Notes under the pieces: model-generated
Database searches by the model: none
Seen by the model: the letters and a program-made list of their open reading frames with translations, nothing else
What the model was told of the DNA's origin: nothing
Position numbers and translations under genes: made by a program
Source: Prochlorococcus sp. AG-459-E08
Lineage (GTDB): Bacteria; Cyanobacteriota; Cyanobacteriia; PCC-6307; Cyanobiaceae
Length of the DNA: 64,000 bases
Reading direction: 5' to 3'
NCBI GenBank assembly: GCA_003209425.1
Contig: QCRB01000002.1
Coordinates: 28,486-92,485, forward strand
Part shown: in pieces, positions 48,727 to 59,490 of the stretch
How the letters are laid out: each line of letters begins with the position of its first letter
How positions within the stretch are numbered: the stretch's first letter is position 1

Positions 48727-48856
48727 ACTAAGTAAATTTACCTATTAATATAGTTATTAAGCATTTAGGAAGTGCTTAGCTGGTTAAGTTCAGAAATCCT
48801 GAAATTAACTTAATCGTCATGAGAGCTTGCATGTAGGGATACAAGCAAGCTCTTTA
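48727..48856 (+). ncRNA. candidate small RNA ending in a terminator
   Basis: Intergenic; hairpin GTTAA-G-TTCAG-AAATC-CTGAA-A-TTAAC (48783-48809), then GAGCTTGC-N14-GCAAGCTC (48823-48852) and TTT; 5' end not determined. Confidence 0.45.
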
Positions 48857-56124: not shown

Positions 56125-56366
56125 TTTTTAGAACTCTCAACAATCTTTTTGTAAAGTTCTTCAGAAATAGGTTGCATAACCTTTTTAAAAACTAATTACA
56201 AATTAGTTGTTTCTAAATTAATTTCTCGTTACTAAATATACGGATATATGAATTTTTAAATAGGCAAAAAATATCTTTACAATAAGTTTTTCTTATAAGG
56301 TATTAATAAATACTAAGTTAAAAAAATTCTATTAATTTACAATTTTTTTAAAAGAAATTAGAGATC

Positions 56367-56468
56367 TTATCTTAAATAACTAGATCCTCTATAAGTAAGC
56401 TTTATTACCTTTTCTTCTTGTTTTCTACAATATACGAATGACTTTCCATTGAAATACATGTTTACCAT
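56367..56468 (-). CDS. 33-aa DUF4278-like peptide
   Basis: MVNMYFNGKSFVYCRKQEEKVIKLTYRGSSYLR*; C-terminal KLTYRGxxY; SD AAGGAG upstream. Confidence 0.78.
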   Translation of the reverse strand: MVNMYFNGKSFVYCRKQEEKVIKLTYRGSSYLR

Positions 56469-56474
56469 GATGCA

Positions 56475-56568
56475 GCTCCTTAACTTGCTCAAGTCCCCGT
56501 CCTATGGCTCGAGTCGTACTGCGGTCTATCAGATGGTAGATCGGACGATTTTGTAGTATTTACTACAA
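56475..56568 (-). ncRNA. structured 5' leader of the DUF4278-like peptide; resembles glutamine-riboswitch-class (glnA / Downstream-peptide) RNAs
   Basis: Closing helix CGTCC (56543-56547) / GGACG (56498-56502); inner hairpin TCTA..TAGA; CCGCAGTACG core segment; GC-rich against AT-rich surroundings. Confidence 0.5.
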
Positions 56569-56601
56569 CCTATTTATAAAGTATTTATACTTAGATGTCA
56601 A
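56551..56601 (-). promoter_or_regulatory. sigma70 promoter TTGACA-N17-TATAAA plus NtcA-like palindrome GTAGTAAATACTAC
   Basis: Minus strand: -35 at 56596-56601, -10 at 56573-56578; GTA-N8-TAC within 56551-56568. Confidence 0.7.
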
Positions 56602-58866: not shown

Positions 58867-59490
58867 AATAAGTAAATTGGATTTGATATCTATAAACTAT
58901 TCATTTGAATTTACAAATGATGTAGTATTTTCTACCAAATTGTTATTTTTAAAAGATAATTCTTTAATGGAATTTACGAAAAGAGAAGATATTTGATTTC
59001 AATTGGAATCTGATTAATTTAAATTTATTAATGAGGTTGCTACTTTATCAGTAATGAATAAATTGAACTTCTTTTACTTTTTCAATTCGATAGTCGCATA
59101 TACCAAATTGCATACACTCAAGTTTTCATCACTAAACTTCTTTTCTGAAGACATAGCATCAATAAAAAGGGTAAAAAGCATTTTTTAACGTATGTTTATA
59201 AGGATTTCCACAAGGCACAATAAATCTCCTTTGGTGAAACTCTTAATCCACTAATACTTAGTTATTGCAATGGGGATTAGATAGTTATTTAACGCAAAAA
59301 CTATTTCTGCGTATAATGAGCTCTTTTACCTTGTTGATAAAAATTTTATGTCATAAAAATGCCAAAATAAATTAATAAAAAAGTCAATATAAGAAGATCT
59401 AATCCTAGGTTGGTCATTGGGATAACCTCCTTTGCGCTAAAAAATTATTTAGTATCTCGTAGATAAAAAAATCAAGAGTGGTAATATCTT

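What the first reader, a model, noticed from the sequence alone, without database searches (positions are those of the whole stretch)
56367..56601. Promoter + NtcA-like palindrome + riboswitch-like leader + 33-aa DUF4278-like peptide: a compact nitrogen-sensing cassette
Seen on the minus strand: TTGACA-N17-TATAAA, then TTGTAGTAAATACTACAA (GTA-N8-TAC, the NtcA consensus) at the predicted transcription start, then ATCGTCCGATCTACCATCTGATAGACCGCAGTACGACTCGAGCCATAGGACGGGG, closed by CGTCC/GGACG with an inner TCTA/TAGA hairpin, then an AAGGAG SD and a short ORF ending KLTYRGSSYLR. Known: cyanobacterial glutamine riboswitches (glnA and Downstream-peptide motifs) share a CGUUC...CGGAAGUAGG...GAAGGAACG core, and Downstream-peptide RNAs precede short ORFs. 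I also recall that the PII-interacting peptide PirA is a small protein of the DUF4278 type. Inference: this is a divergent glutamine-responsive leader. The third helix is not well formed and core positions differ, so it could be a new variant or a different leader. The NtcA-like site sits at about +1, not at -41, which would suggest repression rather than activation.
Basis: partly seen in the sequence, partly recalled or inferred. Interest (0 to 1): 0.82.

Follow-up and report, generated by a model that had tools for sequence, protein, structure and literature searches.

The report
Glutamine riboswitch controlling a 33-residue peptide
This is a Prochlorococcus copy of an already known glutamine-sensing RNA switch (glutamine-II) in front of a tiny conserved peptide gene; the less expected part is that a binding site matching the nitrogen regulator NtcA sits on the transcription start of most such switches, suggesting that each gene is gated twice by nitrogen status.

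Summary
Rfam finds a full-length Glutamine-II (Downstream-peptide, RF01704) riboswitch at 56550-56488 on the minus strand (55.5 bits, gathering 33, E 9.8e-11). The promoter, the GTA-N8-TAC palindrome, the aptamer and the 33-aa ORF are conserved in many Prochlorococcus genomes, and the ORF is under purifying selection (pN/pS 0.21). So the glutamine-leader reading is right, but the class is known, not new. CGTCC/GGACG is the pseudoknot, not a closing helix, and the core is intact. The PirA link is wrong: PirA is reported absent from marine picocyanobacteria. DUF4278 is not reached by Pfam, but the paralogous riboswitch peptides are DUF4278, so the peptide is best read as a divergent relative. 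New here: GTA-N8-TAC lies within 45 nt 5' of 58 of 74 non-redundant Glutamine-II copies (0.35% in shuffles). The annotated start of the MED4 paralog Yfr6 is exactly the first G of its palindrome, so the site spans +1 to +14. In a sister subfamily the palindrome lies upstream of the -10 box, which favours a DNA operator over an RNA hairpin. Most likely mechanism: NtcA represses under nitrogen shortage; glutamine turns translation on under excess. NtcA binding, glutamine binding and peptide function are untested here.

The parts
56596..56601 (-). -35 element TTGACA
   Evidence: sequence; TTGAC-N18-TATAAA kept in 67 of 86 distinct orthologous upstreams
56573..56578 (-). -10 element TATAAA, 17 nt from the -35
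   Evidence: the best -10 lies 6-7 nt before GTA in 26 of 53 family members
56553..56566 (-). GTAGTAAATACTAC, NtcA-type operator (GTA-N8-TAC), predicted +1 to +14; predicted start G56566
   Evidence: MED4 Yfr6 annotated transcript starts exactly at the first G of its palindrome
56488..56550 (-). Glutamine-II riboswitch aptamer (RF01704)
   Evidence: 55.5 bits, gathering 33, model 1-60
56543..56547 (-). pseudoknot 5' strand CGTCC (C1-C5)
   Evidence: alignment; covariation
56525..56540 (-). P1 hairpin TCTA...TAGA
56520..56523 (-). linking strand CGCA (C17-A20), ligand-pocket nucleotides G18 and C19
   Evidence: numbering after PMC6698751
56508..56513 (-). P2 5' strand CTCGAG
56498..56502 (-). 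pseudoknot 3' strand GGACG (G36-G40); A35 at 56503
56488..56493 (-). P2 3' strand CTTGAG
56476..56481 (-). Shine-Dalgarno AAGGAG, followed by GCTGC which can pair with the linking strand GCAGT
   Evidence: predicted pairing, GGAGCTGC 95-100% conserved per position in orthologs
56367..56468 (-). 33-aa ORF MVNMYFNGKSFVYCRKQEEKVIKLTYRGSSYLR, stop included
   Evidence: 144 of 200 genomes; pN/pS 0.21
56320..56326 (-). T-run, possible transcript end (about 246 nt); no terminator hairpin found
   Evidence: sequence

Best explanation
A Glutamine-II (type 2, Downstream-peptide) riboswitch mRNA of Prochlorococcus that encodes a 33-residue basic microprotein and is gated twice by nitrogen. Transcription starts at G56566, the first base of a GTA-N8-TAC site (predicted). 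Under nitrogen shortage NtcA with 2-oxoglutarate binds +1 to +14 and blocks initiation (inferred). Under nitrogen excess the site is free and rising glutamine closes the CGTCC/GGACG pseudoknot, which releases the ribosome-binding site, so the peptide is made only when nitrogen is plentiful (direction taken from published type 2 work; not tested for this copy). The peptide probably acts by protein-protein contact on nitrogen metabolism, as the basic GS-inactivating factors do (inferred). Shown here: aptamer class, operator conservation and register, coding selection. Not shown: NtcA binding, glutamine binding, peptide target.
For: RF01704 full-length hit, all pocket nucleotides kept, pseudoknot covariation in 161 of 161 copies. 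RF01704 in 195 of 200 congeneric genomes. GTA-N8-TAC within 45 nt 5' of 58/74 non-redundant copies vs 0.35% in shuffles and 1/74 in an upstream control. Annotated Yfr6 transcript starts at the first G of the palindrome. In the copies examined the operator lies on the start or just upstream of the -10, not at the activating -41.5 position. Yfr6 RNA falls on N depletion (PMC1242208). Type 2 switches turn expression on with glutamine, and PMM1846 combines switch and NtcA motif (PMC6316151). ORF pN/pS 0.21.
Against: No NtcA binding data for these sites. Tests for Shine-Dalgarno release gave no signal above swapped controls. Sixteen of 74 copies lack GTA-N8-TAC, and three of those keep a hairpin with another spacing or sequence (L119, L193, L195). 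The window peptide has no Pfam or NCBIfam hit.
Confidence: 0.75

Rival explanations
1. The palindrome works as a 5'-terminal RNA hairpin (GUAGU-N4-ACUAC) that protects the mRNA end or helps aptamer folding, not as a protein site on DNA.
For: The transcript would start exactly with the hairpin. 132 of 133 copies with GTA-N8-TAC have an inverted repeat with arms of 4 bp or more; L119, L193 and L195 keep a hairpin without GTA-N8-TAC. glnA-promoter sites are less palindromic inside.
Against: In the CGTTG subfamily the palindrome lies 21-24 nt upstream with a -10 between it and the aptamer, so it would not be transcribed. GTA and TAC are the most fixed positions, and inner positions break pairing in many copies.
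Confidence: 0.2
2. The RNA mainly acts in trans or as a dual-function RNA, as once proposed for Yfr6 (RNAIII-like, or with an antisense partner as toxin-antitoxin), and the peptide is secondary.
For: Proposed for Yfr6/Yfr14 in PMC1242208 and PMC2518516.
Against: Codon-position bias and pN/pS 0.21 show that the peptide is selected; the leader is a known ligand-binding aptamer; the window copy is a paralog of Yfr6, not Yfr6.
Confidence: 0.05
3. The aptamer has changed ligand, since its pseudoknot pair 4:37 and the triple base 35 differ from most members.
For: All 19 CGTCC copies have A35 and C4:G37, against G35 and U4:A37 elsewhere.
Against: Pair 4:37 is not among the highly conserved nucleotides around the ligand in PMC6698751; the pocket nucleotides C1, G2, U3, G18, C19, A38-G42 are intact.
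Confidence: 0.05

Closest known systems
Glutamine-II riboswitch / Downstream-peptide motif (RF01704)
   Same: Full-length model match, pseudoknot, pocket nucleotides, short ORF behind it, marine picocyanobacterium
   Different: Pseudoknot pair 4:37 is C:G with A35 instead of U:A with G35
Yfr6 of Prochlorococcus MED4 (627729..627972 complement)
   Same: Palindrome, aptamer and 33-aa ORF in the same order and register
   Different: Yfr6 is a paralog encoding MTLIYRG..., which belongs to the group of DUF4278 peptides; it ends in a strong terminator hairpin, the window copy does not
PMM1846 of MED4 (type 2 switch, DUF4278, NtcA motif; described in PMC6316151)
   Same: Dual NtcA and glutamine control of a small protein
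   Different: 7 kDa protein with DUF4278; the window ORF has 33 aa and no Pfam hit
PirA (Ssr0692, Synechocystis)
   Same: Small, basic, NtcA-repressed, made under N excess
   Different: Reported absent from marine picocyanobacteria; no shared sequence shown

Membership tests
Glutamine-II riboswitch (RF01704) | covariance-model score above the gathering cut-off | tested here: met
   55.5 vs 33 bits
Glutamine-II riboswitch (RF01704) | pseudoknot with conserved pocket nucleotides | tested here: met
   numbering from PMC6698751
Glutamine-II riboswitch (RF01704) | in a 5' UTR before a short ORF in marine picocyanobacteria | tested here: met
Glutamine-II riboswitch (RF01704) | binds L-glutamine | not testable with these tools
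   needs in-line probing or calorimetry
DUF4278 (PF14105) | Pfam score of 25.3 bits or more | tested here: not met
   no hit at E<=10; not found by the genome scan; orthologs below cut-off
DUF4278 (PF14105) | paired YRGxxY-type motifs | tested here: inconclusive
   FNGKSF and YRGSSY align with YRGQKY and YRGKAY; hhalign matches the C-terminal 16 aa, probability 90
PirA | homology to Ssr0692 | not tested
   paper reports absence in marine picocyanobacteria
NtcA-regulated promoter | GTA-N8-TAC site near the promoter | tested here: met
NtcA-regulated promoter | NtcA binding and N-dependent expression | not testable with these tools
   only literature on the paralog Yfr6

The most novel reading that the evidence does not exclude
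Dual gating is the rule for the glutamine-II class: most copies carry an NtcA operator placed to block initiation (on +1 to +14, or just upstream of the -10), so NtcA and the riboswitch together form a two-input nitrogen gate on a family of YRG-repeat microproteins, of which the window peptide is a strongly diverged branch.
Probability: 0.6. Interest if true: 0.5.

Novelty: new member of a known kind. Interest (0 to 1): 0.37.

Why it matters
Regulation of glutamine synthetase in marine picocyanobacteria is called unclear in PMC6316151. A conserved operator fused to most glutamine-II switches makes a direct test possible: do NtcA (2-oxoglutarate) and the riboswitch (glutamine) jointly set the level of a microprotein family whose targets are unknown?

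Tried and rejected
Yfr6 identity of the window copy: at first assumed, then rejected, because the Yfr6 coordinates in a genome of exactly MED4 size (1,657,990 bp) hold the MTLIYRG paralog. Expression platform: neither Shine-Dalgarno accessibility nor linking-strand:Shine-Dalgarno duplex energy beat swapped-aptamer controls, so the GCAGT:GCTGC pairing predicted for the window stays a suggestion; it is also lost in L187. AlphaFold2 gave a low-confidence model (pLDDT 68.6, pTM 0.20, an N-terminal beta hairpin), so no fold search was made. The promoter scan did not list the TTGACA/TATAAA pair because it requires a final T. Klahn et al. 2018 (PMC6212724) is not held, so I cannot say whether the family-wide operator was already noted there.

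Full report
Observation. From 5' to 3' on the minus strand: TTGACA (56601-56596), 17 nt, TATAAA (56578-56573), 6 nt, GTAGTAAATACTAC (56566-56553), AAAAT, CGTCC (56547-56543), a TCTA/TAGA hairpin, GGACG (56502-56498), AAGGAG (56481-56476) and a 33-codon ORF (56468-56367).

The aptamer is known. cmscan gives a full-length RF01704 Glutamine-II match at 56550-56488, 55.5 bits against a gathering score of 33, E 9.8e-11 for the whole window. CGTCC/GGACG is the pseudoknot helix of this class. The pocket nucleotides listed in the crystal paper (PMC6698751) are all present. The window's genome, a 69% complete assembly, has a second copy; 195 of 200 congeneric genomes have at least one, and 12 near-complete ones have 3-7. 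The organism is taken to be Prochlorococcus because nearly all records that match a pattern of this leader carry that name.

A small structural variant. In all 161 copies compared, the bases at pseudoknot pairs 4:37 and 5:36 and at position 35 fall into three sets: CGTTC/GAACG with G35 (136), CGTTG/CAACG with G35 (6) and CGTCC/GGACG with A35 (19, including the window). Position 35 forms a triple with pair 4:37 in the crystal, so the joint change supports that contact. The 19 belong to one orthologous group and may be one event.

The ORF is real. It is found in 144 of 200 congeneric genomes. Over 105 distinct ORFs pN/pS is 0.21, and variability rises from 0.035 to 0.079 to 0.166 at codon positions 1, 2 and 3. 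It has no Pfam or NCBIfam hit. The ORFs behind other Glutamine-II copies form a clear family of microproteins: mostly 33 aa with two YRGxxY motifs, or 55-58 aa with three; two tested members score 33.1 and 41.2 bits against DUF4278. The window peptide aligns FNGKSF and YRGSSY with the two motifs; profile comparison matches the C-terminal 16 residues (probability 90), and one ortholog touches DUF4278 at E 0.064. I read it as a diverged branch, not as a Pfam member. The PirA suggestion fails: PMC8092223 reports PirA to be absent from marine picocyanobacteria.

The palindrome. GTA-N8-TAC by itself is weak evidence: 17 in the window, 7 expected. Its place is not. Among 74 non-redundant RF01704 copies from the genus and family, 58 have it within 45 nt 5' of the core, mostly 3-7 nt away; shuffles give 0.35% and an upstream control stretch 1 of 74. 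The motif lies outside the search model, so the selection was not circular. In eight genomes the stricter GTAGC-N4-GCTAC occurs 18 times, and by coordinates 14 of these abut a Glutamine-II aptamer; two of the rest lie in coding sequence.

Register. MED4 Yfr6 is annotated at 627729..627972 complement (PMC1242208). In G015, whose single contig has 1,657,990 bases, the size I recall for MED4, that stretch reads as a 244-nt RNA starting GTAGCAACCGCTAC. So the annotated start is the first G of the palindrome, and the site spans +1 to +14. A -10 box lies 6-7 nt before GTA in 26 of 53 copies. Yfr6 is a paralog; the MED4 ortholog of the window copy is at 350508-350328 and has the same layout.

DNA or RNA. 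In five copies of the CGTTG subfamily the palindrome lies 21-24 nt upstream with a -10-like box between it and the aptamer. It would not be transcribed there, which favours a DNA operator. Neither position is the -41.5 of NtcA-activated promoters; both would hinder initiation. Against this, L119, L193 and L195 keep a hairpin but not GTA-N8-TAC, so an RNA role is not excluded.

Expression platform. Published work says that type 2 switches turn genes on with glutamine (PMC6316151), and PMC6698751 suggests release of the ribosome-binding site. My folding tests neither support nor exclude this: accessibility and duplex energies match swapped-aptamer controls. For the window, the linking strand GCAGT can pair with GCTGC just after the Shine-Dalgarno, and that stretch is 95-100% conserved per position.

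Conclusion. A new member of a known riboswitch class before a conserved 33-aa peptide without a family name. The family-wide operator is the most interesting addition. I found no statement of it in the papers that I could read, but the key paper (Klahn et al. 2018) is not held.

Noticed in passing
58922-58935 (minus strand site GTAGAAAATACTAC): GTA-N8-TAC followed after 22 nt by TAGTTT (TAN3T), the canonical NtcA-activated promoter layout, upstream of a 42-aa ORF at 58866-58738 that looks like a high-light-inducible protein. It contrasts with the +1 site of the riboswitch gene.
   Followed up: partly
48759-48847 plus strand: Yfr20 sRNA (RF02367, 99 bits).
   Followed up: no
L134-L152 in part, L196 (RF01704 copies resembling the crystallised sequence): These copies lack GTA-N8-TAC near the aptamer; their leader to the next ATG is longer, and 31-33-aa ORFs rich in lysine were called there.
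   Followed up: partly
L121, L082, L086, L087: A Glutamine-II copy before a longer ORF (MKFSHITIMSNNVSTSVRSNNTTAIFAGFLGAFVVGSLGVQLVRT...) with no Pfam hit.
   Followed up: no
window-wide: 17 GTA-N8-TAC matches against 7.1 expected in shuffles.
   Followed up: no
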